A stretch of DNA of 64,000 nucleotides from Stenotrophomonas maltophilia (GTDB taxonomy: Bacteria; Pseudomonadota; Gammaproteobacteria; Xanthomonadales; Xanthomonadaceae): positions 752,750-816,749 of the forward strand of contig NZ_CP033877.1 of the NCBI RefSeq assembly GCF_006970445.1, read 5' to 3'. A program made the translations under genes and the position numbers. Below are positions 21,122-49,877 of this stretch, in pieces. The notes below the pieces were generated by a model. It had not been told where the DNA came from. It did not search any database and worked only from the letters and a program-made list of their open reading frames with translations. Position 1 is the first letter of the stretch, and each line of letters starts with the position of its first letter.

Positions 21122-21235
21122 GGCGGGGCGGCGTGGGTGTGCAGGACACGCCGTAAACCCATCCATGGGGGCTCGATGGCGCCATCCATGGCGCCAACGG
21201 TCCTGCACACCCACACCGCCCCGCCTTCGACAGTT
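21122..21235 (+). ncRNA. covarying intergenic hairpin element, copy 1
   Basis: The outer stem pairs 21122-21147 with 21200-21225 (25 of 26 bases complementary). Inside are ACGCCGTAAA, hairpin P2 (CCC, loop ATCCAT, GGG) and hairpin P3 (GGCGCC, loop ATCCAT, GGCGCC at 21178-21195). A conserved tail TTCGACAGTT follows. A small palindrome and an AACATCAAC run lie upstream at 21061-21105 and are also seen before copy 2. Transcript status is not known; I call it ncRNA-like because its stems covary between copies. Confidence 0.55.
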
Positions 21236-21250
21236 CCCCGCGATCCGCAG

Positions 21251-21335
21251 TGGATCCACGCCATGCGTGGATGAATTCAGTAGATCCACGCCATGCGTGG
21301 ATAGTGTTGCGGCAGCGCCGGGCCATGCCCGGCGC
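21251..21335. repeat. tandem SMAG REP cluster
   Basis: Two nearly identical units (GGATCCACGCCATGCGTGGA at 21252-21271 and GTAGATCCACGCCATGCGTG from 21280) are followed by GCGCCGGGCCATGCCCGGCG at 21315. All lie between convergent genes. Confidence 0.8.
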
Positions 21336-21344
21336 ACGTCCGCC

Positions 21345-22046
21345 TCAGTTGCAGTTGACCTTCGGCGCCAGCGCCTTGGTCCAGATCGCGTAGCCGGCCG
21401 GGGTCATGTGCAGCATGTCCTCGCGGAACAGCGTCGCATCCGGCTGGCCATCGGCACCGAGCATCGGCGTGTAGACGTCGGTGAAGCCGGTGTTGGGCAG
21501 CTTGGCCAGCGCGGCCTTGATCAGCGTGTTGGCTTCGTTGATCGCCGGCAGCAGATGCGCACGGGACGGGCTCGGCTTGATCGACAGGTACTCCACCCTG
21601 GTCTTCGGCAGGTCGCGGTGCACGCGCTGCACGAAGGCAACCACATCGTCGCGCACCTGCACGGCGCTGCGGCCACTGTTGAGGTCGTTGTCGCCCGCGT
21701 AGAAGAACACCTTGCAGGGCGCATACGGCACCACGATGCGGTCGGCGTACCAGGTGCTGTCTCGCACTTCCGAACCACCAAAGCCGCGGTTGAACACCGG
21801 CTGGCCCGGGAAGTCCGCCGCCAGGCTCGCCCACATGCGGATCGAGGAACTGCCGATGAATTCAATGCCACCGCGCGGCGGCGGGTTGGACTGGTCGGCG
21901 CTGGCGAAGCGGGCCATGTCGCCGGCCCAGGCCACGTTGGAGACCTGTTCGGGCACCTGCGGCGGCTTGGCCGGGCCCAGGGCCTGGGCAAGCGGTGCGG
22001 CGGTCAGCAGGCCCAGCATCAGCAGGCAGGTACGGCGACGGGACAT
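21345..22046 (-). CDS. secreted SGNH/GDSL-family hydrolase
   Basis: A 233-residue protein with a signal peptide of about 24 residues (APLAQA cleavage). The SGNH catalytic set is visible: the Ser in FIGSSSIRMW near 66, the block-II Gly in NRGFGGSE, GDND with Asn near 120, and the Asp-His pair in EDMLHMTPAGY near 213. This is the PAF-acetylhydrolase-like subgroup of esterases and acetyl hydrolases acting in the periplasm or outside. Substrate unknown, although the group includes carbohydrate deacetylases. ATG 22046 starts the signal peptide. Confidence 0.83.
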   Translation of the reverse strand: MSRRRTCLLMLGLLTAAPLAQALGPAKPPQVPEQVSNVAWAGDMARFASADQSNPPPRGGIEFIGSSSIRMWASLAADFPGQPVFNRGFGGSEVRDSTWYADRIVVPYAPCKVFFYAGDNDLNSGRSAVQVRDDVVAFVQRVHRDLPKTRVEYLSIKPSPSRAHLLPAINEANTLIKAALAKLPNTGFTDVYTPMLGADGQPDATLFREDMLHMTPAGYAIWTKALAPKVNCN

Positions 22047-22259
22047 CAGGCGCTCCAGCAGGCAAGGGGGCATCCATCATAGGAGCACGGCCCGGCCCGG
22101 TGCTTGCCCCTGGCAGGCCGTTCAGCGGGCCGGCGCGGGGTGCGGTTGGCGGCCTTGTGGCAAAATGGCGGCCATCTGCCTATTCCTGTGCACCCATGAT
22201 TCCCTGCCGTGCGTCTGAGCGGTCGCTGCGCCGCGTCCCTGTTGCTGGATGTTCCACCC

Positions 22260-22655
22260 GTGGCTGATCAGTTCGGCCACATGCCCCGCGGTCCGCGCCG
22301 CATCTTCCAGGCTGCCCGCTGGTCCTGGCAGGGCCTACGCGCCGCCTGGCTGCACGAGTCCTCGTTCCGGCTGGAGGTGTACCTGCTGGTGATGCTGACT
22401 CCGGTCGCGATCTGGCTGGGCCAGACCCCGGTCGAACGCGCGCTGCTGATCGGCTCGATGCTACTGGTGCTGGCGATGGAACTGGCCAACTCGGCCATCG
22501 AAGCGGTGATCGAACGCTACGGCAGCGAGATCCATGAGCTGGCCGGCCGCGCCAAGGACATGGGCTCGGCCGCGGTGTTCGTGCTGATGATGAACGTGCT
22601 GCTGTGCTGGGCGCTGGTCGTGGTTCCGCACGCGCTGGCCGGCAATTACGGCTGA
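22260..22655 (+). CDS. dgkA: diacylglycerol kinase
   Basis: A 131-residue inner-membrane enzyme with three helices. It has the family signature MELANSAIEAVIERYG near residue 77 and GRAKDMGSAAVF near 101, with Glu and Asn residues of the active site. It recycles diacylglycerol formed when phospholipids donate head groups to periplasmic glucans or lipid A. I chose GTG 22260 (VADQFGHMPRG) because homologues start there; ATG 22281 and GTG 22209 are alternatives. Confidence 0.9.
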   Translation: MADQFGHMPRGPRRIFQAARWSWQGLRAAWLHESSFRLEVYLLVMLTPVAIWLGQTPVERALLIGSMLLVLAMELANSAIEAVIERYGSEIHELAGRAKDMGSAAVFVLMMNVLLCWALVVVPHALAGNYG

Positions 22656-22689
22656 AACCCCCATTCCCCCACTGCCTTGAAGAGTTTCC

Positions 22690-23439
22690 ATGTCCTTTGA
22701 GTTCCTCGCCGACCCCAATGCCTGGGTGACCCTGTTCACCCTCAGTGCGCTGGAAATCGTGCTCGGCATCGACAACCTGGTGTTCATTTCCATCGCCGTC
22801 AGCAAGCTGCCGGAAGAGCGTCGCCCGTTCGCGCGCAAGCTCGGCATCGCCGTGGCGTGCATCACGCGTATCGCGCTGCTGGTGTCGCTGGCCTACCTGG
22901 CGCACATGGCGGCCAACCTGTTCACCGTGGCCGGCATGGGCATCTCCATCCGCGACCTGGTGCTGATCGTCGGTGGCCTGTTCCTGATCATCAAGGGCTT
23001 CATGGAGATCAAGGAACTGATCAGCGGCGGCGAGGATGAAGATCCCAGCACGACCAAGGCGTCGGCCGTGTTCGGCTACGTGATCGCCCAGATCGCGGTG
23101 ATCGACATCGTGTTCTCGCTGGACTCGGTGATCACCGCCGTCGGCATCGCCGACCACATCCCGGTGATGGTGGCCGCCATCCTGCTGTCGGTCCTGGTGA
23201 TGCTGCTGGCCGCCAACCCGCTGGGCCGCTTCATCGATGCCAACCCGACCGTGAAGATGCTGGCCCTGGCCTTCATCCTGCTGATCGGCGCGGTGCTGAT
23301 CCTGGACGGCCTGGACGTGCACGTGCCGAAGCCCTACATCTATGCCGCGATGGGCTTCTCGGTGCTGGTGGAGTGGCTGAACCTGCTGATGCGCCGCCGC
23401 GCCCGCGAACACAACGTGCCGGGCGCCGGCAACTGGTAA
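22690..23439 (+). CDS. TerC-family membrane protein
   Basis: A 249-residue integral membrane protein with seven hydrophobic segments. The TerC hallmarks are ALEIVLGIDNLVFISI at residues 19-34 and IAVIDIVFSLDSVITAVG near 138, with paired acidic residues in the membrane. Members move Mn(II) or Ca(II) or help load exported metalloenzymes; the family was first named for tellurite resistance. The gap from dgkA is only 34 bases, so there is no room for a yybP-type Mn riboswitch. A strong hairpin follows the gene. Confidence 0.85.
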   Translation: MSFEFLADPNAWVTLFTLSALEIVLGIDNLVFISIAVSKLPEERRPFARKLGIAVACITRIALLVSLAYLAHMAANLFTVAGMGISIRDLVLIVGGLFLIIKGFMEIKELISGGEDEDPSTTKASAVFGYVIAQIAVIDIVFSLDSVITAVGIADHIPVMVAAILLSVLVMLLAANPLGRFIDANPTVKMLALAFILLIGAVLILDGLDVHVPKPYIYAAMGFSVLVEWLNLLMRRRAREHNVPGAGNW

Positions 23440-23467
23440 TCGCGCCACTGGCGTGTGCGTCCCTCGG

Positions 23468-23489
23468 AACCCCCGGCATGCCGGGGGTT
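23468..23489 (+). terminator. terC transcription terminator
   Basis: AACCCCCGGCATGCCGGGGG plus TT is an almost loop-free palindrome 29 bases after the terC stop. It is followed by a short T-containing run (TTCTGCGTT). Confidence 0.7.
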
Positions 23490-23666
23490 CTGCGTTGTGG
23501 GGGCGAGGCCGGCCCTGCAGCGGCGCTGCGGCTTTTGCACCTGCAGCGGGATTCTAGCCCCCACTTGTGAACCAGGATCAACAGTGTTTTCCCGGGGCGA
23601 GGCTTAATCCGGTACAGCAAAGCGCGCAGGCTACGCACTCCCGATTCCGCCCCCCAGGAAACCCCC

Positions 23667-24827
23667 ATGAATTCCAGAGCCGCCTTGCTGGCGCTTGCCG
23701 TCGGCGCCTTCGCCATCGGAACCACCGAGTTTGCCCCGATGGGCCTGCTGCCGGTCATCGCCGACGGCGTGGGTGTCGGCATTCCCACCGCCGGCATGCT
23801 GATCACCGCCTACGCCGTGGGCGTGATGCTGGGCGCACCGGTGATGACCCTGCTGATGGGCCGTTTCGGCAAGCGCACCGCGCTGATGCTGCTGATGTCG
23901 ATCTTCGTGGTCGGCAACCTGTTGTCGGCGCTGGCCCCGAACTACGGGCTGCTGTTGTTGTCGCGCCTGGTCACCAGCCTCAACCACGGTGCCTTCTTCG
24001 GCATCGGTGCGGTGGTCGCCGCCAGCCTGGTACCGAAGGAAAAGCAGGCCGCAGCCGTGGCCACCATGTTCATGGGCCTGACCATCGCCAACATCGGCGG
24101 CGTGCCGCTGGCGACCTGGGTCGGCCAGCAGCTGGGCTGGCGCCTGTCCTTCGCCGGTACTGCGGTGCTGGGCCTGGTCGCGATCACCGCGCTGGGCTTC
24201 GCGCTGCCGGCGTCCGCGCCGGGACCGCGCCCGGACGTGCGCCGTGAACTGAAGGCGATCCTGCAACCGCAGGTGCTGCTGGCGATGGCCACCACCGTGC
24301 TCGGCGCCGGTGCCATGTTCACCCTCTACACCTACGTAGCGCCGGTGCTGACCGAACTGACCGGTGCCTCCAACGGCTTCATCGCGATGTCGCTGGCGCT
24401 GATCGGTATCGGCTTCACCCTCGGCAACGGCATCGGCGGGCGCATGGCCGACTGGTCGCTGGATGGCGCCACACGGATCCTGCTGGCCGTCCTGGCGGTG
24501 CTGATGTTCGTGCTGCCGCTGGCCTTCATGAGCCACGCCACCGCTGCCCTCGGTGTGCTGCTGTTCGGTGCGGCGACCTTCGCGCTCGTGCCGCCGCTGC
24601 AGATCCGGGTGATGCAGGCGGCCAGCGAGGCGCCGGGCCTGGCATCGTCGATCAACGTCGGTGCGTTCAACCTGGGCAATGCCGTGGGTGCGGCGCTGGG
24701 CGGTGCGGTGATCAGCTCGGGCCTGGGCTATGCCGCGATTCCGGTGGCCGGTGGCCTGCTGGCGGCATCGGGCCTGCTGCTGGCATGGCTGGGGCGGACG
24801 CGCACTGCGGTGGCCGAGGCCTGCTGA
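23667..24827 (+). CDS. MFS efflux transporter, AraJ/YdhP-like (DHA1)
   Basis: A 386-residue transporter with 12 predicted helices. The N-terminal GTTEFAPMGLLPVIADGV motif is typical of the YdhP/AraJ/YdeA group of drug-H+ or sugar efflux pumps. The loop 2-3 signature is MGRFGKRTALMLL. The helix-5 region GAFFGIGAVVAASLV belongs to the same group. Export of an arabinose-like sugar or of drugs is the family role. Substrate is not readable. One copy of the covarying hairpin element lies about 90 bases after the stop. Confidence 0.83.
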   Translation: MNSRAALLALAVGAFAIGTTEFAPMGLLPVIADGVGVGIPTAGMLITAYAVGVMLGAPVMTLLMGRFGKRTALMLLMSIFVVGNLLSALAPNYGLLLLSRLVTSLNHGAFFGIGAVVAASLVPKEKQAAAVATMFMGLTIANIGGVPLATWVGQQLGWRLSFAGTAVLGLVAITALGFALPASAPGPRPDVRRELKAILQPQVLLAMATTVLGAGAMFTLYTYVAPVLTELTGASNGFIAMSLALIGIGFTLGNGIGGRMADWSLDGATRILLAVLAVLMFVLPLAFMSHATAALGVLLFGAATFALVPPLQIRVMQAASEAPGLASSINVGAFNLGNAVGAALGGAVISSGLGYAAIPVAGGLLAASGLLLAWLGRTRTAVAEAC

Positions 24828-24920
24828 GGAGTGTTGGATTCCGGCAGGGCTTGCAGCCCTGCACCCGCCGAGGCCACTGCAACATCAACAGCAACAGCAA
24901 CAGCGTGCATTCCGTGGGAT

Positions 24921-25036
24921 GGCGGGGTGGGTCCGGTGGCGGGGGACGCCGTAAACCCGTCCATGGGGGCTTGGCCGCGGCATCCATGCCGCGGACACCC
25001 CCGCCACCGGACCCACCCCGCCTTCGACAGTTTTCC
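24921..25036 (+). ncRNA. covarying intergenic hairpin element, copy 2
   Basis: A perfect 25-bp outer stem pairs 24921-24945 with 24998-25022. P2 is CCC, loop GTCCAT, GGG. P3 is CCGCGGC, loop ATCCAT region, GCCGCGG at 24975-24994. The conserved tail is TTCGACAGTTTTCC. The lead-in (CACCCGCCGAGGC, then AACATCAAC and CAGCAA repeats) matches copy 1. Confidence 0.6.
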
Positions 25037-25065
25037 GCGATCGGTCGCAACGGCGTTCCGCTCTG

Positions 25066-25089
25066 GTAGGTGTCGACCTTGGTCGACAC
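25066..25089. repeat. single SMAG-type REP
   Basis: GTAGGTGTCGACCTTGGTCG followed by ACAC: a GTAG head and a TGTCGACC/GGTCGACA stem. It lies between hairpin copies 2 and 3. Confidence 0.7.
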
Positions 25090-25149
25090 GAATGTCTGAA
25101 GAACCGGCTTTTGCTTTTGATTTTTTCTTTTGATCTTCCCGCGGTGCGC

Positions 25150-25267
25150 AGGAAATTGTCCGTGGCCGGGAGGGTGGGTTGGCTGGGGGCGTGAGCGCCA
25201 TGGATGGCGCGACCGAGCCTACAAGGACGTATTCACGGCGTCCCCCAGCCAACCCACCCTCCCGGCC
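25150..25267 (-). ncRNA. covarying intergenic hairpin element, copy 3 (inverted)
   Basis: The outer stem pairs 25164-25189 with 25242-25267 exactly (26 bp). On the minus strand the core reads ACGCCGTGAA, then P2 as TAC, loop GTCCTT, GTA, then P3 as GCGCC, loop ATCCAT, GGCGC. The change of P2 from CCC/GGG to TAC/GTA keeps pairing. On the plus strand, the direction of lemA transcription, the loops read AAGGAC and ATGGAT, and the element ends about 110 bases before the lemA ATG. Confidence 0.6.
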
Positions 25268-25377
25268 AACCCCAGAGAACCAGCAAACAACCCACCGCGG
25301 AGGGGGCGGCGCCCGATGGCCGGTCTTTCACCCGAACCATGGCATGCTCGGCGCCAAGCCCACCCGGAACCTCCGCC

Positions 25378-25995
25378 ATGCGCCTGTTCACCCGCGTCCT
25401 GCCCCTGATGCTGTTGGCCTCCCTGCTGTCCGGCTGCGGCTACAACGCCATCCAGCAGAAGGATGAAGCGGTCAAGGCCAGCTGGTCGGAGGTCATCAAC
25501 CAGTACAAGCGCCGCGCCGACCTGGTGCCCAACCTGGTGCAGACCGTGAAGGGCTTCGCCAGCCAGGAAGAGCGCGTGCTGACCGAAGTGACCAACGCCC
25601 GTTCGCGTGTCGGCCAGATCAACGTCAACGCCGATGACGAAGCCTCGCTCAAGCAGTTCCAACAGGCCCAGGGCGAACTCGGCAGTGCGCTGTCGCGGCT
25701 GCTGGTGGTCACCGAGAACTATCCGCAGCTGAAGTCCGACCAGAACTTCCGCGACCTGCAGGCGCAGCTGGAAGGCACCGAGAACCGGGTCACCGTCGCG
25801 CGCGGCCGCTACATCCAGCAGGTGCAGGACTACAACACCTACATCCGCTCGTTCCCGCAGGTGATCACCGCCAAGATCTTCGGCTACAAGACCAAGCCGA
25901 ACTTCACCGTGGACAACGAAGCGCAGATCTCCAACGCGCCGGCGGTCGATTTCGGCAACGCGCCGCAGCAGCCGGCACCGCAGCCGGGCCACTGA
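25378..25995 (+). CDS. LemA family lipoprotein
   Basis: A 205-residue protein with a lipoprotein signal (LLASLLSGCGYNAI; lipobox LSGC, Cys 19). The mature part is the LemA fold, a long helical bundle with NQYKRRADLVPNLVQTVKGF at about residues 42-61 and FPQVITAKIFGYKTKPNF near 162. LemA proteins are envelope-anchored and of uncertain function, and they almost always sit beside TPM-domain proteins, as here. ATG 25378 begins the signal. It heads a three-gene unit. Confidence 0.9.
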   Translation: MRLFTRVLPLMLLASLLSGCGYNAIQQKDEAVKASWSEVINQYKRRADLVPNLVQTVKGFASQEERVLTEVTNARSRVGQINVNADDEASLKQFQQAQGELGSALSRLLVVTENYPQLKSDQNFRDLQAQLEGTENRVTVARGRYIQQVQDYNTYIRSFPQVITAKIFGYKTKPNFTVDNEAQISNAPAVDFGNAPQQPAPQPGH

Positions 25996-25998
25996 CCG

Positions 25999-26886
25999 AT
26001 GCGCCTGGCCACTGCGCTGCTGGCACTGCTGCTGTGGCTGCCGCTGGCAGCGCAGGCGCAGCAGCTGGCGTCGATTCCTGCGCTGGATTCACCGGTGGTC
26101 GATACCACCGGCACGCTGGACGCCATGCAGAAGCAGGCGCTGGTGCAGCAGGCGCTTGAACTGCAGCAGCGCAAGGGCAGCCAGCTGCAGGTGCTGGTGG
26201 TGCCCACCACCCAGCCGGAGGACATCGCGCAGTACACCACGCGGGTCTTCGACCAATGGCAGATCGGCCGCAAGGGCGTGGATGACGGCGTGCTGCTGGT
26301 GGTGGCCAAGGACGACCGGCGCGTGCGCATCGAGCCGGGCTACGGTCTTGAAGGCGCCATCCCCGATGCCATCGCCAACCGGGTCATCCAGGAATACCTG
26401 GTCCCACGCTTCCGCAGCGGCGACTACGCCGGTGGCATCACCGATGCCACGGCGGTACTGGTCAAGCTGATCGACGGCGAAACGCTGCCTGCACCGGTCA
26501 GTGGCCATCGCGGGCGGGAGCCTGGCGGTGGCGGCGACAGCTGGTTCCTGGCGTTGTTCATCGGTGTGTTCGCCGGCAGCATCCTGCGCGGTGTGTTCTC
26601 GCGCGTGCCGCGTCCGCTGCGTGGCCTGCTCGGCGGCGCGGGTGCAGCGCTGCTGGCCTTCGTGTTCACCTCCACCGTGCTGGCCAGCGGTGTGGCCGGC
26701 ATCGTGGGCCTGATCGTGGCGATGCTCTCCGGCCACCCGGGCCGCTTTGCCGGCGGCGGTGGCTGGGGCGGCGGCAGCTGGGGAGGCGGAGGTGGCTTCG
26801 GAGGAGGCGGTGGATTCGGTGGTGGCGGCGGCTGGGGCGGTGGCGGCGGCCGTTCCGGCGGCGGCGGCGCTTCGGGAGGCTGGTGA
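25999..26886 (+). CDS. TPM-domain (YgcG-like) membrane protein with glycine-rich tail
   Basis: A 295-residue protein. Signal peptide about residues 1-21, then a TPM_phosphatase (YgcG) domain at about 35-160 with VVDTTGTLD, VLVVPTTQ and RIEPGYGLEGAIPDA. Then two hydrophobic segments at about 178-198 and 210-240, and a 45-residue tail made almost only of Gly with Trp, Phe and Ser. Such tails are typical of the YgcG/LemA partner protein. It starts three bases after the lemA stop. Confidence 0.85.
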   Translation: MRLATALLALLLWLPLAAQAQQLASIPALDSPVVDTTGTLDAMQKQALVQQALELQQRKGSQLQVLVVPTTQPEDIAQYTTRVFDQWQIGRKGVDDGVLLVVAKDDRRVRIEPGYGLEGAIPDAIANRVIQEYLVPRFRSGDYAGGITDATAVLVKLIDGETLPAPVSGHRGREPGGGGDSWFLALFIGVFAGSILRGVFSRVPRPLRGLLGGAGAALLAFVFTSTVLASGVAGIVGLIVAMLSGHPGRFAGGGGWGGGSWGGGGGFGGGGGFGGGGGWGGGGGRSGGGGASGGW

Positions 26887-27380
26887 TGATCCAACGTCTA
26901 TGTCGCCATGTGTTTTCGCCGTCGGTACGGCGCGCGTTCCCACCCGCCACATTGCAGGCGATCACCGAGGCCATTGCGGCCGGTGAGCAGCGCCACGGCG
27001 GGCAGGTGATGTTCGCGGTGGAAGCGGACCTGCCGCTGGCCGCGCTGTGGCACAAGGTCACCCCGCGCCAGGCCGCCGAGCATGCCTTCGCCCGCCTGCG
27101 CACCTGGGATACCACCCATAACAACGGCGTACTGATCTATCTGCTGCTGGCCGACCACGCCATCGAGATCGTCGCCGACCGTGGCCTGCATGGCCGGGTC
27201 AGCCCGGCGCAGTGGCAGCGGGTCTGCACGCACCTGCGCGAGGGGTTGCGGGGCCCGAACCCGGTCGAGGCGCTGCGCGGCGCCATCGAAGAGGTCTCGA
27301 CCCTGGTGGAGGGGCACTTTCCGGCCTCGATGCGGTCAGACGATGACGGCCTGCCCAACACACCCCAGCTCCTTGGTTGA
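26886..27380 (+). CDS. second TPM-domain protein, soluble
   Basis: A 164-residue protein with a TPM domain (HGGQVMFAVEADLPLAALW near residue 38, TWDTTHNNGVLIYLLLADHA near 76, EIVADRGLHGRV near 96) but no signal peptide and no tail. It overlaps the previous stop (TGATG). The pair of TPM proteins behind LemA is a common arrangement. An alternative GTG start lies three bases upstream. Confidence 0.83.
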   Translation: MIQRLCRHVFSPSVRRAFPPATLQAITEAIAAGEQRHGGQVMFAVEADLPLAALWHKVTPRQAAEHAFARLRTWDTTHNNGVLIYLLLADHAIEIVADRGLHGRVSPAQWQRVCTHLREGLRGPNPVEALRGAIEEVSTLVEGHFPASMRSDDDGLPNTPQLLG

Positions 27381-27431
27381 GCCGGGGCGGCACTGGCCCG
27401 AGAATAGGCGTTCAACCGCAAGGCACCTTCC

Positions 27432-28315
27432 ATGATCTATTTCCACGACATCGACCCCATCGCCCTCTCGCTGGGGCCGATCAAGGTGCATTGGTACGGC
27501 ATCATGTACCTGCTCGGCTTCACTGCGGCCTGGCTGCTGGGCCGCAAGCGCATCGCCGACGGGCGCCTGCCGGGGGTCGATGCCAACGGCTTCTCCGACC
27601 TGCTGTTCTACGCCATGCTCGGCGTGGTGCTGGGCGGACGCATCGGCTACATGCTGTTCTACGCGCTGGGCGATTTCCTGCACAACCCGCTGCTGCTGTT
27701 CAAGGTGTGGGACGGTGGCATGAGCTTCCACGGTGGCCTGCTGGGCGTGATCGCCGCCTGCTGGTGGTGGTCGCGCAAGCACAGGCTGCATTTCTTCGAC
27801 ACCATGGATTTCATGGCGCCGCTGGTGCCGCTGGGCCTGGGCTTCGGCCGCATCGGCAACTTCATCGGTGCCGAGCTGTGGGGCAAGTACACCGACGGTA
27901 CCTGGGGCGTGGTGTTCCCGTCCGGCCTGCCGGCTCCGCTGAACCAGCTCGACCACGCGACGCTGCAGGCGCAGTTCGCGACCGGCGCGCTGAACCAGTT
28001 CGCCCGCCATCCCTCGCAACTGTATGAAGCGTTGCTGGAGGGCCTGGTGATGTTCGTGGTGCTGTGGACGGTGTCGGCCAAGCCGCGTCATCGCTATCTG
28101 GTCGGTGGCCTGTTCGCGCTGCTGTACGGCCTGTTCCGCTTCGCCGTCGAGTTCGTGCGCATGCCCGACAACGGCGTCTACGTGGCCTTCGACTGGCTGA
28201 CCCGCGGCCAGATCCTCAGCCTGCCGCTGATCGCCTTCGGCCTGGTGCTGCTGGTGATGTCGCGCCGCGCACCGGTACTGCAGCCGCAGCTGCCGGTGGC
28301 CACCGAGGGCAAGGC

Positions 28316-28319
<4 letters not shown>
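27432..28319 (+). CDS. lgt: prolipoprotein diacylglyceryl transferase
   Basis: A 295-residue inner-membrane enzyme that transfers diacylglycerol from phosphatidylglycerol to the lipobox cysteine, the first step of lipoprotein maturation. Seven helices are predicted. The essential motifs are present: the YLLGF region near residue 26, [10 protein letters not shown] near 63, MSFHGGLLG near 98 with catalytic His, and [15 protein letters not shown] near 140 with essential Arg. Its stop overlaps the thyA start by four bases, as in E. coli lgt-thyA. Confidence 0.96.
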
Positions 28320-29106
<787 letters not shown>

Positions 29107-29110
<4 letters not shown>

Positions 29111-29670: not shown

Positions 29671-29683
29671 GGAGGTGGCAGCA

Positions 29684-30175: not shown

Positions 30176-30185
30176 TCGCGGAAAT

Positions 30186-30230
30186 ACCAACGAAAACACC
30201 GACGAAAACACTGACGAAAACACCGACGGG
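30186..30230 (+). repeat. short 12-base tandem repeat
   Basis: The unit CCGACGAAAACA occurs about three times with single changes (CCAACG, CCGACG, CTGACG, CCGACG before GAAAACA or GGGC). It is AT-richer than its surroundings. Three short copies only, so it is a minor direct repeat after folA. Confidence 0.6.
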
Positions 30231-30231
30231 C

Positions 30232-30315
30232 TAGAGTCGACTGTTAGTTGATTATCGCGCGCAGCGCGGGGTTTTCAGGGGGCGTCAGGAGCAGTCGACT
30301 AACAGTCGACTCTAC
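30232..30315. repeat. SMAG REP inverted pair
   Basis: TAGAGTCGACTGTTAGTTG at 30232-30250 is mirrored by AACAGTCGACTCTAC at 30301-30315, preceded by CAGTCGACT. The pair makes a long hairpin between the convergent folA and DUF1287 genes and probably closes both transcripts. Confidence 0.8.
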
Positions 30316-42703: not shown

Positions 42704-42706
42704 CTC

Positions 42707-42772
42707 AAAAAGGGGACGGAGGGGATTAAGTCGTATGTGCACATACGACTTAATCCCCTCCGTCCCCTTTTT
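42707..42772. terminator. perfect 66-bp palindrome, bidirectional terminator
   Basis: Left arm 42707-42739 and right arm 42740-42772 are exact reverse complements over 33 bases, with A5 at the left end and T5 at the right. The centre is CATATGTGCACATACG-like (GTGCAC). It sits between convergent genes, four bases after one stop and overlapping the first base of the other stop, so it fits a bidirectional rho-independent terminator, though it is far longer than needed. Confidence 0.8.
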
Positions 42773-43170
42773 CAATCAACCAGCCATCCAACCAGGTCGG
42801 CGCGGTCCAGCTTGCCGCGATGCCTGCGGTCCAGCGAATTGAATTCATCGGCCAGCGCCGGGTTGGCCTGTGCTTCCTCGCGGCTGATGAAGCCATCGTT
42901 GTTCACGTCGAGGTCGCTGAAGTGGATGCGGTACTGACCGACCACGCTGCTGGGTTCCAGCGAACGCACGGTCACCTGTGCCTCGCCGGCCGGCTGCGGA
43001 ATCTCGACGCTGCCGCTGACCCGTCCGGCATCCAGTGGTTGCTGGCGGATCGCGCCGCCGGTCGGGCCCAGTGGCTGGCTCTGCGCCGGCATGGACGGGC
43101 CGTGCTGGGCCATGGCCGGTACCGAAGCCAGCAGGATGGCCAACAGCACGGCGGAGCGTGGAATGTTCAT
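42772..43170 (-). CDS. secreted protein with one EF-hand
   Basis: A 132-residue protein with a signal peptide of about 23 residues (ASVPAMA cleavage) and a low-complexity Pro/Gln/Gly linker. An EF-hand loop lies in SDLDVNNDGFISREEA (about residues 86-101) with Asp, Asn, Asp, Gly and Glu in the Ca-binding positions. A second partial loop is DRRHRGKLDRADL, whose ligands are poor. Function is unknown; calcium binding in the periplasm is inferred. ATG 43170 starts the signal peptide. Confidence 0.75.
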   Translation of the reverse strand: MNIPRSAVLLAILLASVPAMAQHGPSMPAQSQPLGPTGGAIRQQPLDAGRVSGSVEIPQPAGEAQVTVRSLEPSSVVGQYRIHFSDLDVNNDGFISREEAQANPALADEFNSLDRRHRGKLDRADLVGWLVD

Positions 43171-43234
43171 GACAGGCTCCTTGCCAGAGGGTACCGGGAG
43201 CGTACTCCCGGCAACCTGTGCCGCCGATGACGGA

Positions 43235-44302
43235 TCAGCGCAGCGGCGAGGCCAGCACAGTGATCTCTTCACGGTCGTGATAGAGCTGTTTGGCGCGCAC
43301 CACCAGCGGCTTGCCGGCCTGGTCCTGGAACAGGTCCAGGCACAGCCGGGTCTCGTCCCAGCGCTTCTTCATCGGCAGCTTCAGATTGAAGATCGCGTGC
43401 CTGCACCAGCCTTCGCGGAACCAGGTGGCCATGCGTTCGGCCACGCGGCGCGGCTGCTCGACCATGTCGCAGACCATCCAGTCCAGCGGCTGTTCCGGGT
43501 GCCAGTGGAAGCCATCGGCGCGCAGGTGCTCGACCAGCCCGGTGTCCAGCACGTGCTGGCGCAGCGGACCATTGTCGATGCTCAGCACGTGCATGTGCTG
43601 GCGGGTCAGTACCCAGGTCCAGCCACCGGGTGCGGCGCCGAGGTCAGCCGCGCGCATGCCGGGCTTGGCCAGCGCCTCGCGTTCTTCCGGCGTCAGCAGG
43701 GTCAACAGCGCCTCGTCCAGCTTCAGTGCCGAACGCGAGGGGGCCTCGGGCAGCAGCTTCAGGCGCGGGATGCCCAGTGCCCACGGTGCGCTGTCGGCCG
43801 GATCGGCCACGCAGACGAAGGCGTGGGTGCCGTCGACGAACACGACGTGCAGGCGCGGCAGGCGGTTGTTTGGCTTGTCGCTGAGCTTGCCGGCCTTGCG
43901 CAGCGCCGGGCGCAGCGCATTGCCGAAGGCGCGGGCCAGCCCGGACAGCGGCTTGCCGGCGTCCGAATCGGGATGTTCCACCCACAGGTCGCCGAAGCGC
44001 GGCGCATCGGCCAACACCTCCAGCATCGGGGTGATGCGGTCGCTCGGATCCAGCTGCGGCAGCTCGGCCAGCACCACCAGCTTCTGCCGCGCGAAGATCA
44101 GCTCGCGCCAGCGCAGGCGCGGCGCCAGCGCAGCGGCCTCGTCGCACATGAAAAGCACGTAGCCATCATTGCGCTGGGTGCGCGCATAACCGGCGAAACC
44201 GGCTTCGCCGGCGCGGAACTGCAGCTCGCCGGCCAGCTCGGGCTCGAAGCCCTGCCGGCACAGGCACAGCAGGCCGATGCCGGTTTCAGTAACGTGCGCC
44301 AT
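43235..44302 (-). CDS. rlmM: 23S rRNA (cytidine(2498)-2'-O)-methyltransferase RlmM
   Basis: A 355-residue enzyme (YgdE) with an N-terminal THUMP-like domain and a C-terminal RrmJ-type methyltransferase domain. Motif I is AADLGAAPGGWTWVLT near residue 208, and the K-D-K-E type tetrad lies in this domain (for example MVCDMVEQP near 264 and FNLKLPMKKRW near 297). It modifies C2498 of 23S rRNA. ATG 44302 overlaps the end of the deaminase gene by 17 bases; ATG 44314 is possible. Confidence 0.9.
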   Translation of the reverse strand: MAHVTETGIGLLCLCRQGFEPELAGELQFRAGEAGFAGYARTQRNDGYVLFMCDEAAALAPRLRWRELIFARQKLVVLAELPQLDPSDRITPMLEVLADAPRFGDLWVEHPDSDAGKPLSGLARAFGNALRPALRKAGKLSDKPNNRLPRLHVVFVDGTHAFVCVADPADSAPWALGIPRLKLLPEAPSRSALKLDEALLTLLTPEEREALAKPGMRAADLGAAPGGWTWVLTRQHMHVLSIDNGPLRQHVLDTGLVEHLRADGFHWHPEQPLDWMVCDMVEQPRRVAERMATWFREGWCRHAIFNLKLPMKKRWDETRLCLDLFQDQAGKPLVVRAKQLYHDREEITVLASPLR

Positions 44303-44846
44303 CGCTTTCCCCATAGGCACGCAGCACGCTGCGCGCGGCGTCGCGGTTCAGGCCCTGCACCACCTCGATGCCACGCTTGCTGAGCTCGCCCACCCAGTCG
44401 GCCGGCAGCGGGCCTTCATCGAACGGGGTCAGCTCTTCTACGTCGGCCGAGTTGGCACCGATCAGCAGGCGGTCGATGCCGGCCCACACGGTGGCGCCGT
44501 AGCACTGGCAGCACGGTTGCGAGCTGGTGGCCAGGGTGACCGGCGACAGCACCGCGTTCAGGCGCGGGGTCTGCAGGCGCTGCTGGGCCAGCATGTAGGC
44601 CATGTTCTCGGCGTGCGCCAGCGAGGTCGCGTGCGGCATCACCCGGTTCACGCCGGCGGCGATGACCTTGTCGTCCGGGCCGAACACCACGGCGCCGAAC
44701 GGGCCGCCACTGGCGTGTTCGACGTTCAGCCGCGACAGCTCGATCGCCAGCGCGACCTTGGCCTCGTCGCCCGGATATCGACGATCCAGGTCGATCTGGT
44801 CGTGGATCCAGGCGGGAAGGGTCAGGTGGACTTGCGCGTACAGCAT
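44286..44846 (-). CDS. nucleoside/guanine deaminase-like cytidine-deaminase-fold enzyme
   Basis: A 186-residue zinc deaminase. The catalytic HAE motif is in TSLAHAENMAYML near residue 77, and the zinc cysteines in SSQPCCQCYGATVWAGI near 108 (PCxxC). FGAVVFGPDD near 51 aligns with the substrate-binding strand. It is the guanine-deaminase/TadA-like group. Substrate (guanine, cytosine or a nucleoside) is not determined by these motifs. ATG 44846 is chosen because residues before it do not fit the fold. Confidence 0.82.
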   Translation of the reverse strand: MLYAQVHLTLPAWIHDQIDLDRRYPGDEAKVALAIELSRLNVEHASGGPFGAVVFGPDDKVIAAGVNRVMPHATSLAHAENMAYMLAQQRLQTPRLNAVLSPVTLATSSQPCCQCYGATVWAGIDRLLIGANSADVEELTPFDEGPLPADWVGELSKRGIEVVQGLNRDAARSVLRAYGESDGARY

Positions 44847-44944
44847 CGCGGGGGTGCCTCGTAGTGGAATGGAAGAAGGTGCGGTTGCTTGGGAAACCGG
44901 CGCGCAGTGTAGCCGCACCGGCCTGTATCGGGTGTGGCGGCGGA

Positions 44945-45667
44945 TCAGCCCGGCGCGCCGGTACGGATCACCACGTACTGCTTGCGGAATTCCAGCCCGG
45001 CCTGCGGCCAGCTGGCGGCATAGGCGCGCAGCAGGGGCAGGGCGGCAGCGAAGTCGTGGCCATTGACCCGGCAATCGGCCTCGCACAGTCCATCGGCATC
45101 GCGCGAGGCGAACAGGCGGATGGCGAGGAAGTGGCGGGCTTTAAGCAGCTCATCGAAGGCCTCCATGCTGCGGGTGAACAGGCAGCAGGGGCAGGAACCA
45201 TGGTCGTCCTCGCTGCAGGTGGACGCATCCACTTCCTGCGCGCGGTAGTGTGCCAACGGCCCCAGCACCACGGTGCGCTGGTGTTCCTCGCCATCGTCGC
45301 CGGCCGGATAGGTCAGGCCCATCATCGGCAGGCCCTGAGCGCCTTCGGCGCCGATCGCAGTCTGCAGGGTCACCAGGTCCACCCGGGCCCAGGCCTGGAA
45401 GCCGGACAGCAGCGATGCCTGCTCATCGGCACCGTTGGCGTGCTGGTACTCGAACAGGCCGTCGGCGAACAACACCGGATGCTGGGCCTCGATGACTGTG
45501 GAGGTCTGCCAGCCGCCGTTGTCGCGCGCGTGCGCGGCCATCGCATGCGGAGTCAGGCGCAGGCCGCTGTCCAGCAACAGCGCGCTGCCGTCGATGCGGC
45601 TGGCGGTGCCGGCATCCTGCAGGGCCTGGTGCAGCAGTGGGAGGAGGGCGGTGGCGCTCGTGGTCAT
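44945..45667 (-). CDS. DUF6348-type protein, uncharacterised
   Basis: A 240-residue soluble protein that resembles the family now called DUF6348. Recognisable blocks are EAQHPVLFADGLFEYQHANG near residue 60 and a cysteine cluster (TCSEDDHGSCPCCLFTRSMEA) near 145, which could bind a metal. No catalytic motif is evident. It is part of the minus-strand set between glnS and rlmM. Function unknown. Confidence 0.68.
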   Translation of the reverse strand: MTTSATALLPLLHQALQDAGTASRIDGSALLLDSGLRLTPHAMAAHARDNGGWQTSTVIEAQHPVLFADGLFEYQHANGADEQASLLSGFQAWARVDLVTLQTAIGAEGAQGLPMMGLTYPAGDDGEEHQRTVVLGPLAHYRAQEVDASTCSEDDHGSCPCCLFTRSMEAFDELLKARHFLAIRLFASRDADGLCEADCRVNGHDFAAALPLLRAYAASWPQAGLEFRKQYVVIRTGAPG

Positions 45668-45715
45668 GTCAGGCCTGTGGATGGATGGGGCGGAGCATCC
45701 AGGCAGGGCCTGGGG

Positions 45716-46381
45716 CTAGCGGTCGAGTGCGTCGAGTTCGGCGCGATATCGCAGCGCGTCGGGCTGCTGCTGCGGATCGTTGCCGTGGTCGCGCAGCCAG
45801 GTTTCCAGCTCGCGGCGATAGTCCGCGCGGAAATCGGCATTGCCCGGGCTGAAGTGCAGCTTGCGTGCCGCCACCTCCACGCGCTCGCGTGCGCTGGCCC
45901 GGGCCTGGGCGATGCCATGCGGTGATTCGTTGGTGAGGATGACGAAGTTGCGCGGGAAGCCCGGCGTGTACTTCACCACGAATGGCTGGTCCTGCGCCGG
46001 GATGCGGATGGCGTTTTCCAGTGGCCACAGCGAAGCGGTATTGGTGTGGAACACCACCTCCACATCGCGCCCTTCGGCAGTGCGCAGCACCGCTTCGTAG
46101 CGCCAGATGTACTGCTCGTTGAGCGTGGAGTTGGTTTCCTCGGCCTTGACGATCACCGCTTCGCCACGCTCGCCCACCACGTTGAGGAAGGCGGCGTTGA
46201 GGAAGTGGCCGAGGAAGATATTGAGCATCGCCAGCGGGAACACCACGATGGCGTAGCCCGGAAAGCGCCGCCACCACGAGACCAGCCCGGCCAGCACCAT
46301 CGCCGCAAAGAACGTCAGCAGCGGATGCTGCGAGATGAACCAGAGCAGGGCGGAGAGGGCGGTGATCATCGTCGTGGTCAT
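45716..46381 (-). CDS. membrane-anchored protein of unknown function
   Basis: A 221-residue protein with two N-terminal transmembrane helices (about residues 10-31 and 44-66). The soluble rest has a beta-rich part (YIWRYEAVLRTAEGRDVEVV) with a PFVVKYTPGFPRNF strand, ending in a charged helical tail. No recognised family. It follows glnS by 31 bases on the same strand. The start could be ATG 46381 or 46369. Confidence 0.65.
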   Translation of the reverse strand: MTTTMITALSALLWFISQHPLLTFFAAMVLAGLVSWWRRFPGYAIVVFPLAMLNIFLGHFLNAAFLNVVGERGEAVIVKAEETNSTLNEQYIWRYEAVLRTAEGRDVEVVFHTNTASLWPLENAIRIPAQDQPFVVKYTPGFPRNFVILTNESPHGIAQARASARERVEVAARKLHFSPGNADFRADYRRELETWLRDHGNDPQQQPDALRYRAELDALDR

Positions 46382-46412
46382 GCGGGCGCCGTCCCGGCGC
46401 CCGCGCAGGTCC

Positions 46413-48161
46413 TCAGGCCGACCAGGTGTCGCGCAGGGTCACGCTGCGGTTGAACACCGGCTTGGCTTCGGTGTGGTCGCGGCGGTCGGCGACGAAGTAG
46501 CCGGTACGCTCGAACTGGAACGACTGCTCCGGCGCCGCGCTGGCCGCGGCCGGCTCGACATAGCCGGTGACGGTGCGGCGCGATTCCGGGTTGAGGTAAT
46601 CGCGGTAGGTCTTGCCTTCCGACTCGTCGTCCGGGTTCGGTACCGAGAACAGGCGGTCGTACAGGCGGATCTCGGCCGGCACGCCGTGCACGGCGCTGAC
46701 CCAGTGGATGGTGCCCTTGACCTTGCGGTTGGCGCCTTCCATGCCCGGACGCGATTCCGGATCCAGCCAGCCGCGCAGCTCGGTGATGGTGCCGTCGGCA
46801 TCCTTGATCACTTCGTCGCAGCGGATGATGCCGGCGCCGCGCAGGCGCACTTCGCCACCCGGGACCAGGCGCTTCCAGCCCTTCGGCGGCACTTCGGCGA
46901 AGTCCTCGCGGTCGATCCACACTTCACGTGCGAACGGCACTTCGCGGCTGCCGAAGCTCTCGTCCTTCGGGTGGTTGCTGAAGGTCAGCTGTTCTTCGTG
47001 GCCTTCCGGCAGGTTGGTCAGTACCAGCTTGACCGGATCGACCACCGCCATGCGGCGCGGTGCGGCGCTGTCCAGGTCTTCGCGCAGCGCGCCTTCCAGC
47101 ACGCTGAAGTCGATCAGCGAATTCTGCTTGCTGATGCCCACGCGCTCGGCGAACAGGCGCATCGCGGCCGGGGTGTAGCCACGGCGGCGCAGGCCCTGCA
47201 GGGTCGGCATGCGCGGGTCTTCCCAGCCGTCCACCAGCTGTTCGGTGACCAGCGCCATCAGCTTGCGCTTGCTCATCACCGTGTAGTTGATGTTCAGGCG
47301 CGAGAACTCGATCTGGCGCGGCTTGGCCGCTTCGCGCGGCAGGCCGGCATCGACCAGCGGCTGGGTCAGCGCGTCGTCATGGGCGAAATCGACGTTGTCC
47401 ACGCACCAGTCGTACAGCGGGCGGTGGTCTTCGAATTCCAGCGTGCACAGCGAGTGGGTGATGCCCTCGATCGAATCACCCAGTGCATGGGCGAAGTCGT
47501 ACATCGGGTAGATCGGCCACGCGTTGCCGGTGTTCTGGTGTTCGACGTGCTTGATGCGGTACAGGGCCGGATCGCGCAGGTTGATGTTGCCGCTGGCCAT
47601 GTCGATCTTCGCACGCAGGGTGCGCGCGCCATCCGGGAATTCACCGGCGCGCATGCGGCGGAACAGGTCGAGGTTCTCCTCGACGCTGCGGTCGCGCCAC
47701 GGCGACGGACGGCCCGGTTCGGTCAGGGTGCCGCGGTAGGCGCGCACTTCCTCGGCCGACAGGTCGCAGACGTAGGCCTTGCCCTGTTCGATCAGCTTCT
47801 CGGCGGCCAGGTAATAGGTCTGGAAGTAGTCCGAGGCGTGGCGCAGCTCGTTCCAGCTGAAGCCCAGCCAGCGCACGTCGTCCTGGATCGCGGCCACGTA
47901 CTCCGGATCTTCCTTGGCCGGGTTGGTGTCGTCGAAGCGCAGGTTGCAGACACCGCTGAACTCACCGGCGATGCCGAAGTTCAGGCAGATCGACTTGGCA
48001 TGACCGATGTGCAGATAGCCGTTCGGCTCCGGCGGGAAGCGGGTCTTGATCGCCTGGTGCTTTCCGCTGGCCAGGTCCTCGCGCACGATCTGGCGGATGA
48101 AATCGCGCTTTTCGTGGCTGTCGGCGGGGGTCTCGGGGCTGGCGGGGGTGTGCTCGGACAT
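46413..48161 (-). CDS. glnS: glutaminyl-tRNA synthetase
   Basis: A 582-residue class I synthetase. The HIGH motif is in [17 protein letters not shown] near residue 50, and the KMSKS-type motif is VMSKRKL near 290. The C-terminal part forms the anticodon-binding beta barrels ([22 protein letters not shown]). It charges tRNA-Gln directly. ATG 48161 gives [12 protein letters not shown]; a longer frame upstream is not needed. Confidence 0.97.
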
Positions 48162-48238
48162 GAGTCGGCGAAAAGAAAGGCAGAAAGACCAACAGTCTAG
48201 CGCGTACGGGGCAGGGCTGCCCGGTGGGGGTGTGGGCA

Positions 48239-48340
48239 TGCCGGCCAGCGGCCGGCACTACCAGCCCACTTTCCGGTAGCGCCGGCCGGCGGAACGTGGA
48301 TCGACGTGCAGATGGGTAGTGCCGGCCGCTGGCCGGCAGA
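48239..48340. repeat. cluster of three SMAG REPs
   Basis: TGCCGGCCAGCGGCCGGCAC plus TAC at 48239-48261, GTAGCGCCGGCCGGCGG at 48276, and GTAGTGCCGGCCGCTGGCCG at 48316. They sit between the divergent glnS and the DUF2007 gene, so the promoters of both must lie around or between them. Confidence 0.85.
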
Positions 48341-48413
48341 ACGGTCATGCGCCGTCACCACCACCATTCAGCCCTCGGGCGTATGCTGGACCCCTGCCCC
48401 GAGGAGCCGCCGC

Positions 48414-48677
48414 ATGCACATCGTGTACAAGGCCGACAACCTGTTCGACGCCCATCTGGTCAAGCACGCGCTGGAAGATGCCGGCATTCCCGCCTTCGTG
48501 TTCGGCGAGTCGTTGCTGGGTGGCATGGGGGAATTGCCGCTGTTTGGAGTGCTGCGTGTGGGCATCCCCGATGCGGCGCGGCCACAGGCGGAGGACATCG
48601 TGGCAGCACTGGACTTGGGCCACGCGCCGGACGCCCCCATTTCCGATGCAGACGACATAGCCGGACTTCCGGCGTAG
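48414..48677 (+). CDS. DUF2007-family putative signal-transducing protein
   Basis: An 87-residue protein of the DUF2007 (putative prokaryotic signal transducing) family. The core MHIVYKADNLFDAHLVKHAL, with GIPAFVFGESLLGGMGELP, fits the ferredoxin-like fold found in these proteins. Ligand unknown. ATG 48414 follows GAGGAG at a suitable distance. msrA starts nine bases after the stop. Confidence 0.82.
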   Translation: MHIVYKADNLFDAHLVKHALEDAGIPAFVFGESLLGGMGELPLFGVLRVGIPDAARPQAEDIVAALDLGHAPDAPISDADDIAGLPA

Positions 48678-48686
48678 GAGCGCATC

Positions 48687-49373
48687 ATGTTGGGAATTGG
48701 CCAGGGGATCCTCGGCATCGGCGCCTTCAAGCAGCGCCTGCCGCGCCCGGAAGAAGCACTGCCGGGGCGCGAGCAACCGCTGCCGCTGCACAGCAACCAG
48801 CACTTCGTGAACAGCCATCCGCTGAAGGACCGTTTCGCCGGCCTGCAGCAGATCCGCTTCGCGCTGGGCTGCTTCTGGGGCGCCGAGCGCAAGTTCTGGA
48901 CCGAACCGGGCGTGTACAGCACCTCGGTCGGCTATGCCGGCGGCATCACCCCGAACCCGACCTATGAAGAGGTCTGCTCGGGGCTGACCGGCCACACCGA
49001 AGTGGTGCAGGTGGTGTTCGACCCGGCGGTGGTAAGCCTGGAGCGGCTGCTGCAGCTGTTCTGGGAAAGCCACGACCCGACCCAGGGCATGCGCCAGGGC
49101 AACGACACCGGCACCCAGTACCGCTCGGCGATCCACGCCACCGACGAGGCGCAGTACGCCGCCGCGCTGGCCAGCCGCGAGGCTTACCAGGCGCAGCTGG
49201 ATGCAGCCGGCTACGGCCCGATCACCACCGAGATCGTGTACCCGGCGCCGGAGTACTACTACGCCGAGGACTATCACCAGCAGTACCTGGCGAAGAATCC
49301 GAACGGTTACTGCGGCATCGGCGGCACCGGGGTGAGCTGCCCAATCGGGTTGGATGTGGAGGCGCCGCGCTGA
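48687..49373 (+). CDS. msrA: peptide-methionine (S)-S-oxide reductase
   Basis: A 228-residue repair enzyme. Catalytic Cys 62 is in [14 protein letters not shown]. Other MsrA blocks are [26 protein letters not shown], and THGTQY-like [12 protein letters not shown] near 145. The C-terminal [14 protein letters not shown] carries possible resolving cysteines. It reduces oxidised methionines with thioredoxin, in keeping with the nearby peroxide-defence genes. Two covarying hairpin elements and a terminator follow. Confidence 0.94.
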
Positions 49374-49458
49374 CGCGCGGTGGTCCGCCTGCGGCGGGCA
49401 GAAGCTGAAAGCAACTGCCAAAGCCAAAGCCAAAGCGGCTCTGGGTTGCTGATGGTTT

Positions 49459-49577
49459 GGCGGGACGGGTACAGATGACGGGACACGCCGTGAACCCGTC
49501 CCTGGGGGCTCGGCCACGGCATCCATGCCGTGGACGGTCCCGCCATCTGCACCCGTCCCGCCTCCGATCATTTCCCG
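49459..49577 (+). ncRNA. covarying intergenic hairpin element, copy 4
   Basis: The outer stem pairs 49459-49484 with 49537-49562 (24 of 26 pairs). The core is ACGCCGTGAA, P2 is CCC, loop GTCCCT, GGG. P3 is CCACGGC around the ATCCAT loop and GCCGTGG at 49514-49533. The tail is TCCGATCATTTCCCGG. The hairpin CCGCCTGCGGCGG and AAAGCC repeats upstream correspond to the lead-in of copies 1 and 2. Confidence 0.6.
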
Positions 49578-49620
49578 GTGACGGTGGGCAAGAGCATGGG
49601 TTACTGACGAACTGAAAGAA

Positions 49621-49658
49621 AACAAAAAGGACGCGGCTTTCGCCGCGTCCTTTTTGTT
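49621..49658. terminator. bidirectional terminator between msrA and tal
   Basis: AACAAAAAGGACGCGGC is mirrored exactly by GCCGCGTCCTTTTTGTT around a TTTC loop. It has an A-run on one side and a T-run on the other, which makes it a classic two-way rho-independent terminator. Confidence 0.92.
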
Positions 49659-49675
49659 TGTATGCAGTGCTTTCT

Positions 49676-49699
49676 GTAGAGCGGAGCCATGCTCCGCTC
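49676..49699. repeat. single SMAG REP
   Basis: GTAGAGCGGAGCCATGCTCC followed by GCTC: a GTAG head with a GAGCGGAGC/GCTCCGCTC stem, just after the bidirectional terminator. Confidence 0.78.
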
Positions 49700-49760
49700 C
49701 AAGCAAGCGAAGCGCGCGACCCGCTGTTGCTCTTCTTTCTTTCTTCCGTGGCGGGCGGCC

Positions 49761-49877
49761 ACCGGAAACTGTCAGAGGGCGGGCGGGTTGGGTTCGCGGG
49801 AGTGTCCGCCGCATGGATGCGGCGGCCAAGCCTCCAGGGGTGGGTTCACGGCGTCTCCCGCGAACCCAACCCGCCCG
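49761..49877 (-). ncRNA. covarying intergenic hairpin element, copy 5 (inverted)
   Basis: The outer stem pairs 49780-49802 with 49855-49877 exactly (23 bp). On the minus strand the core is ACGCCGTGAA, P2 is CC(C), loop near ACCCCT, GG, and P3 is CCGCCGC around ATCCAT, GCGGCGG (49806-49825). The tail on the minus strand is CTGACAGTTTCC. It lies in sense orientation behind tal. Confidence 0.58.

What the first reader, a model, noticed from the sequence alone, without database searches (positions are those of the whole stretch)
21122..49877. A family of intergenic elements with covarying nested stems
Five copies (21122-21235, 24921-25036, 25150-25267, 49459-49577, 49761-49877) share one plan. 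An outer stem of 23-26 bp differs in sequence in each copy yet is fully or almost fully complementary. Inside are a conserved ACGCCGTRAA, hairpin P2 and hairpin P3. A GACARTTTYC-like tail follows. P3 stems are GGCGCC, CCGCGGC, GCGCC, CCACGGC and CCGCCGC, all with their exact complements and always around ATCCAT. Such covariation is the classic sign of selection for structure, not sequence. No coding frame explains it.
Basis: seen in the sequence. Interest (0 to 1): 0.85.

Follow-up and report, generated by a model that had tools for sequence, protein, structure and literature searches.

The report
Dispersed folded RNA repeats with GGA hairpins
This bacterial genome carries more than a hundred copies of a short folded repeat, also found in many distant relatives, whose two hairpin tips look like docking sites for the RNA-binding regulator CsrA/RsmA; whether that protein really binds them has not been tested.

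Summary
The five copies share a ~26-bp outer stem (P1) around a 52-nt interior that folds as a three-way junction with hairpins P2 and P3. A 59-sequence alignment shows strong covariation. A covariance model finds 146 copies, 129 strong, in this genome. It matches 63 of 321 genomes of the class; in a 299-genome phylum draw all 19 positives are of this class. Rfam's Ysr224 (RF02770) is a member, but the window copies score below its cut-off.

P1 mismatches show which strand folds: read on the minus strand they are G-U, G-A, G-G (397) rather than A-C, C-U, C-C (83). On that strand both loops read C[ANGGAN]G, the published CsrA/RsmA loop. Close neighbours in this genome are tails-in pairs, 49 of 49.

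Best reading: a class-wide, REPIN-like intergenic repeat that encodes a CsrA/RsmA-docking RNA. The docking step is inferred, and gene orientation speaks against simple read-through of that strand. The main rival is a mobile repeat recognised as folded single-stranded DNA.

The parts
21122..21225 (+). Element E1: left arm 21122-21147, interior 21148-21199, right arm 21200-21225; P2 loop 21161-21166, P3 loop 21184-21189; tail GACAGTTCCC follows. Folded (GGA-loop) strand is the minus strand.
   Evidence: model R1 E=2.2e-21
24920..25023 (+). Element E2: interior 24946-24997; P2 loop 24959-24964, P3 loop 24982-24987. First half of tails-in pair E2/E3.
   Evidence: R1 E=2.7e-21
25164..25267 (-). Element E3: interior 25190-25241; P3 loop 25200-25205, P2 loop 25223-25228. 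Second half of pair E2/E3; its GGA-loop strand is the window + strand.
   Evidence: R1 E=2.8e-19
49459..49562 (+). Element E4: interior 49485-49536; P2 loop 49498-49503, P3 loop 49521-49526. First half of pair E4/E5.
   Evidence: R1 E=1.1e-19
49777..49880 (-). Element E5: interior 49803-49854; P3 loop 49813-49818, P2 loop 49836-49841. Second half of pair E4/E5; its GGA-loop strand is the window + strand.
   Evidence: R1 E=7.5e-20
49620..49659 (-). Terminator-like hairpin with T-run between E4 and E5: leftward transcripts that passed E5 would stop here before reaching E4's GGA strand.
   Evidence: (consensus scan)

Best explanation
A class-wide interspersed intergenic repeat whose unit folds, on one strand, into a three-way junction: a long outer stem of free sequence that presents two short hairpins. 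Most likely the element works as RNA that docks CsrA/RsmA, its many copies acting as distributed docking or titration sites. Shown here: the family, the fold, which strand folds, the loop signature, the tails-in pairing, presence/absence at orthologous sites. Inferred: that this strand is transcribed, that CsrA/RsmA binds it, and what that does. How copies spread is not known.
For: Covariation in all helices. P1 mismatches on 281 distinct arm pairs, minus reading: G-U 256 vs A-C 48, G-A 96 vs C-U 27, G-G 45 vs C-C 8. Loops C[ANGGAN]G on minus in 105 of 111 P2 and 100 of 111 P3, 6 further P3 loops being AGGA pentaloops (my tally of the table); both N take all four bases in P2. Loci reached through neighbouring genes only: 24 of 24 elements have both loops (two sites, one genus). 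Closing C-G fixed (59 of 59 and 57 of 59) while other P2 and P3 pairs covary. Published ANGGAN hexaloop, tolerated 5-nt GGA loop and bridging range 10-63 nt (PMC3791407, PMC7652899, passages). GGA-GGA gap 20 nt in 220 of 273 measured. csrA present in 19 of 19 positives and 57 of 61 tested. Ysr224 copies are expressed in Yersinia ruckeri (PMC12112432, passage).
Against: In 120 of 171 placed elements the near gene ends toward the element and would read the other strand. Single copies between co-directional genes: GGA strand antisense 52, sense 29. A terminator-like site lies between E5 and E4. No promoter excess upstream of the GGA strand over its reversed control; 0 promoter-like sites in the three window intervals. 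Rfam places Ysr224 on the other strand. P3 wobbles do not show the strand skew: 12 vs 20, 8 vs 12. csrA is also in 15 of 17 element-free genomes tested, and G490 (98% complete, 9 matches) shows no csrA. Many loci were fetched with patterns or models that include the loops, so loop counts are partly by construction.
Confidence: 0.45

Rival explanations
1. A non-autonomous mobile DNA repeat of REPIN kind: inverted pairs are the replicating unit, and a transposase (RAYT or another HUH enzyme) recognises one strand folded as single-stranded DNA. Fold and loops serve mobility, not an RNA function.
For: Tails-in pairs 49 of 49 in this genome and 43 vs 1 tails-out in loci of many genomes. Presence/absence and swaps of type at orthologous sites. 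Several copies per genome and on conjugative plasmids. REPINs are inverted doublets with compensatory changes, singlets being remnants (PMC3116915, passages). Wobble skew would also arise in folded single-stranded DNA.
Against: No reason known for ANGGAN with free N in both loops. No clean empty site with target duplication seen. No transposase domain among 10 proteins tested beside three clusters; the genomes were not searched for RAYT genes. Replication-strand bias of unpaired copies is weak, 29 vs 19.
Confidence: 0.33
2. A transcript 3'-end element: the hairpin acts in the other (UCC-loop) strand, downstream of gene ends, as terminator, stabiliser or sRNA source, as Ysr224 is annotated.
For: Near gene ends toward the element in 120 of 171. 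Pairs lie between convergent genes in 16 of 40 placed and between divergent ones in 2 of 40, against 84 and 60 of 358 gaps of at least 100 bp. Ysr224 is modelled on this strand.
Against: P1 mismatches favour the opposite strand; RNAfold energy lower for minus in 187 of 245. No T-run follows the stem in E1-E5.
Confidence: 0.13
3. No selection on structure: palindromes are kept perfect by copying between arms (template switching), and core conservation reflects recent spread.
For: Arms change in compensated blocks at orthologous sites; one relative (L260) keeps a near-perfect palindrome without a core; P3-identical copies in G734 have different arms.
Against: Does not give strand-skewed mismatches, nor covariation in P2 and P3, nor a junction conserved over 55 genera.
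Confidence: 0.07

Closest known systems
Ysr224, Yersinia sRNA 224 (Rfam RF02770)
   Same: Same core and outer arms: contig L313 matches RF02770 at 133.9 bits and model R1 at 72.2 bits at the same place.
   Different: Window copies reach only 35.4 and 32.9 bits against a cut-off of 70. Rfam models the other strand with a different structure line, without the long P1.
REP/REPIN repeats, including Stenotrophomonas SMAG (GTAG REPs)
   Same: Intergenic, palindromic, high copy, inverted doublets with compensatory changes (PMC3116915, passages; PMC2613905, first of four parts read).
   Different: SMAG is a ~23-bp GTAG palindrome of fixed sequence; this unit is ~104 nt, has a three-way junction and free arm sequence. 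No RAYT link tested.
Csr/Rsm sponge RNAs (CsrB, RsmZ family)
   Same: GGA in ANGGAN hairpin loops, several per molecule.
   Different: One or few dedicated genes (recalled), against 129 dispersed copies here; no promoter signal; binding untested.
RsmU (sRX061) of Xanthomonas campestris
   Same: RsmA-binding RNA with GGA hairpins from a 3'-UTR in the same family of bacteria (PMC7694677, abstract, passages and section 2.4).
   Different: Not this element: R1 has no match within the comEA 3'-UTR in 10 loci of genus g18 (taken to be Xanthomonas); changing its four GGA did not abolish RsmA binding in that paper.
TwoAYGGAY RNA motif
   Same: Two hairpins with AYGGAY loops (recalled); listed for gamma-Proteobacteria and others (PMC2864571, table passage).
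   Different: No family of that name among the 60 weak matches; its alignment was not compared.

Membership tests
Rfam RF02770 (Ysr224) | Score at or above the gathering cut-off of 70 bits | tested here: not met
   Window copies 35.4 and 32.9 bits, none at cut-off in the window; 0 of 229 class genomes over cut-off. L313 does meet it.
Rfam RF02770 (Ysr224) | Shared core sequence and junction | tested here: met
   E3 aligns over the whole model; L313 matches both RF02770 and R1.
REP / REPIN | GTAG or CGTC tag at the foot of a 20-40 bp palindrome | tested here: not met
   No such tag at the element ends in E1-E5 by reading; definition from the abstract of PMC3733652 and its title.
REP / REPIN | Inverted doublets over-represented | tested here: met
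   49 of 49 close neighbours in one relative order.
REP / REPIN | RAYT transposase association | tested here: inconclusive
   No transposase domain in 10 proteins beside three clusters; no genome-wide search.
CsrA/RsmA-binding RNA | ANGGAN in hairpin loops | tested here: met
   with the loop definition.
CsrA/RsmA-binding RNA | Binds CsrA/RsmA | not testable with these tools
   needs binding assay
CsrA/RsmA-binding RNA | GGA-bearing strand is transcribed | tested here: inconclusive
   Context does not favour it; no RNA data.
Intrinsic terminator | Stem directly followed by a T-run | tested here: not met
   Reading of both flanks of E1-E5. The scan allows loops of 3-8 only, so it cannot score P1.

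The most novel reading that the evidence does not exclude
Gammaproteobacteria share a mobile-like, paired RNA repeat that scatters CsrA/RsmA-docking junctions through their genomes, here in over a hundred copies, so that the cell's free CsrA/RsmA is set partly by selfish intergenic repeats and not only by a few dedicated sponge RNAs.
Probability: 0.3. Interest if true: 0.88.

Novelty: new variant of a known kind. Interest (0 to 1): 0.72.

Why it matters
It turns a single Yersinia sRNA entry into a class-wide repeat family with a defined junction fold, a folded strand and a testable protein partner. If CsrA/RsmA binds, many unannotated sites enter the Csr/Rsm budget; this would bear on xanthomonads in particular, where my one listing on the question showed RsmU as an RsmA-sequestering RNA. 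If it does not bind, the family is still a large REPIN-like repeat with an unusual fold and fast-changing, always complementary arms.

Tried and rejected
Rfam at the gathering cut-off gave nothing; at E<=10 most of 60 matches were microRNA hairpins matching the long stem, the exception of note being Ysr224. BLAST of E1 against plasmids and phages: none. A text search for six core strings: 0 papers. Bordetella BRE (PMC3110155, passages), ERIC/YPAL (PMC2267715, passages), TwoAYGGAY and Alcanivorax Csr RNAs (PMC9788540, passages) were considered from their texts; none was compared by sequence. 'Arms are copied from the target at insertion' was considered because P3-identical copies in G734 have different arms; no clean empty site was seen, so it stays open. 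'The core flips freely' was considered from L253-L255, but 49 of 49 pairs in one order speak against frequent flips. RsmU as the same element: rejected. csrA co-occurrence: none of the 20 same-class genomes without csrA that one search lists (list cut, 99 more not shown) is a positive, but lineage confounds this and one search shows no contrast.

Limits: matches per genome are floors, since only the top candidates of each genome were scored. A3 used 86 of the loci then held, chosen mostly outside Stenotrophomonas. Gene contexts use my own simple ORF caller; 54 of 227 units were dropped as edge and 2 lay inside ORFs, 61 were edge and 6 inside. That the class is Gammaproteobacteria is inferred from named hits. 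The 29 vs 19 strand count assumes that the contig starts at the origin.
Full report
Observation. The five copies are as described. Arms are 26-28 nt, 92-100% complementary, and the interior is exactly 52 nt in all five. E3 and E5 are in minus orientation; E2/E3 and E4/E5 face each other with their tails inward. The neighbouring genes are ordinary: histidine kinase, GDSL lipase, MFS transporter, LemA, methionine sulfoxide reductase, transaldolase.

A large family. An exact pattern finds 75 copies in the 4.55-Mb host chromosome, and its reversed control 0. A relaxed pattern finds copies in 81 of 297 genomes of the family. A 59-sequence alignment gave model R1. R1 finds 146 matches at E<=0.001 in the host, 129 of them below 1e-12. 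It matches 63 of 321 genomes of the class, 55 of 242 genera, and 19 of 299 genomes in a phylum draw, all 19 of this class. The Rfam model RF02770 finds weak matches in 32 of 229 class genomes, none over its cut-off, and in 0 of 14 control genomes.

Fold. On the 59 sequences 90.1% of cells are standard pairs; 529 cells change on both sides against 174 in shuffles (sd 9.9), and sliding partners by 1-3 columns lowers pairing to 36-48%. Two measures are weak: 25 pairs with a double change against 22.7 shuffled, and 79 further pair types against 77.7. All 14 modelled P1 pairs change on both sides. P2 is 3+3 pairs with a 5-nt bulge; P3 has nine pairs and one mismatch position. The structure was drawn from these sequences, which favours it in the slide control.

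Which strand folds. If a stem is selected as one strand, its mismatches should be those which that strand tolerates. In 281 distinct arm pairs (6638 pairs, 6135 Watson-Crick) the minus reading has G-U 256 vs A-C 48, G-A 96 vs C-U 27, G-G 45 vs C-C 8, and U-U 12 vs A-A 11. Copies are related, so these are not independent events. In the more diverse A3 the counts are P1 57 vs 22, P2 5 vs 2, and P3 12 vs 20, the last one the other way. In 231 cores of 52 nt the P2 and P3 wobbles are few and unskewed, 4 vs 3 and 8 vs 12, but a common P3 subtype has T-C next to C-T, which reads as tandem G-A on the minus strand. RNAfold energy is lower for minus in 187 of 245. The strand call therefore rests mainly on P1.

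The loops. On the minus strand both hairpins end in C[ANGGAN]G. Among 111 distinct elements of A3, 105 P2 loops and 100 P3 loops fit, and 6 further P3 loops are pentaloops with AGGA (my tally of the table). Part of this is by construction, because many loci were fetched with patterns or models that hold the loops. Elements reached only through neighbouring genes, at two sites in one genus, give 24 of 24 with both loops, including four cores that are otherwise rewritten; in shuffles of 36 rows 3 of 18,000 had two. The closing C-G is fixed while most other P2 and P3 pairs vary. Papers give ANGGAN as the hexaloop bound by RsmE and its kin, report binding of a 5-nt GGA loop, and give 10-63 nt as the range one dimer can bridge (PMC3791407, PMC7652899, passages). 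The two GGA are 20 nt apart in 220 of 273 measured. A third ANGGA just 3' of the stem on the minus strand is commoner than its mirror, 66 vs 14 of 282, and 11 vs 1 of 54 in the class/phylum loci; on the other side it is 26 vs 18. This is the ground for the CsrA/RsmA reading; no call shows binding.

Arrangement and history. All 49 close neighbours among the 146 host matches are tails-in pairs, 180-331 bp apart for the 43 strong ones; 48 matches are unpaired. In loci from many genomes there are 43 tails-in pairs, 1 tails-out pair and 8 larger groups. At the E1 site relatives have the element, lack it, or keep remnants. At the E2/E3 site, 16 of 20 relatives could be compared and carry elements of several arm and core types, some truncated. 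In another genus one site shows the core in one orientation (L251-252, L256-259), inverted (L253-255), lost with a near-perfect palindrome kept (L260), or no element in the other 20 loci by reading; a second site shows compensated arm changes such as T-A to G-C between L285 and L283.

Against the docking reading. In 120 of 171 placed elements the near gene, a median of 83-98 nt away, ends toward the element and would read the other strand. Single copies between co-directional genes have the GGA strand antisense in 52 and sense in 29. A terminator-like site lies between E5 and E4. Promoter scores upstream of the GGA strand do not exceed the reversed control. Rfam places Ysr224 on the other strand. 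csrA does not discriminate: 57 of 61 positive and 15 of 17 negative genomes have it, and G490, 98% complete, has the element without a csrA match.

Known relatives. RF02770 (Ysr224) is a subtype: L313 matches it at 133.9 bits and R1 at 72.2 bits. A review lists Ysr224 among the 20 most prevalent sRNAs by instances (PMC9029176, passages and section 2.2), as a dispersed repeat would be. Yersinia ruckeri expresses several Ysr224 copies differently (PMC12112432, passage). My searches listed no paper that describes this family as a class-wide repeat or as CsrA-binding; the library holds open-licence papers only and I read a few of those listed.

Verdict. A real, strand-biased, covarying three-way-junction repeat family. 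Its partner is most likely CsrA/RsmA, and next a transposition enzyme; both could be true.

Noticed in passing
21280-21302 and the E2-E3 spacer (about 25068-25091): GTAG-type REPs (SMAG-like) lie next to the elements, here and at the orthologous sites of relatives.
   Followed up: partly
L187 (E1 site), L192 and L200 (E2 site), L183 (E3 site): Another repeat unit of roughly 70-110 nt sits inside the P2 loop in L187, L192 and L200, and a different insert inside the P3 loop in L183, as if mobile repeats aim at these loops.
   Followed up: no
42707-42772: Perfect 33-bp palindrome without spacer.
   Followed up: no
54180-54270: Another inverted repeat, 30-nt arms 87% complementary with 31 nt between, unlike the elements.
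   Followed up: no
L206 (G753 C1:94430-95646): Six elements in tandem with a period of about 227 bp.
   Followed up: partly
L334, L335, L336: A relative of the Ysr224 subtype sits about 80-105 nt downstream of a gene end on an IncN conjugative plasmid of Klebsiella, an E. coli chromosome and a Pantoea plasmid.
   Followed up: partly
L294, L299, L304, L305: Diverged cores in which the ACGCCGTRAA side is rewritten yet both NTCCNT loops remain.
   Followed up: partly
G490: Genome 98% complete with 9 element matches but no CsrA match: a possible counter-example to the CsrA reading.
   Followed up: no
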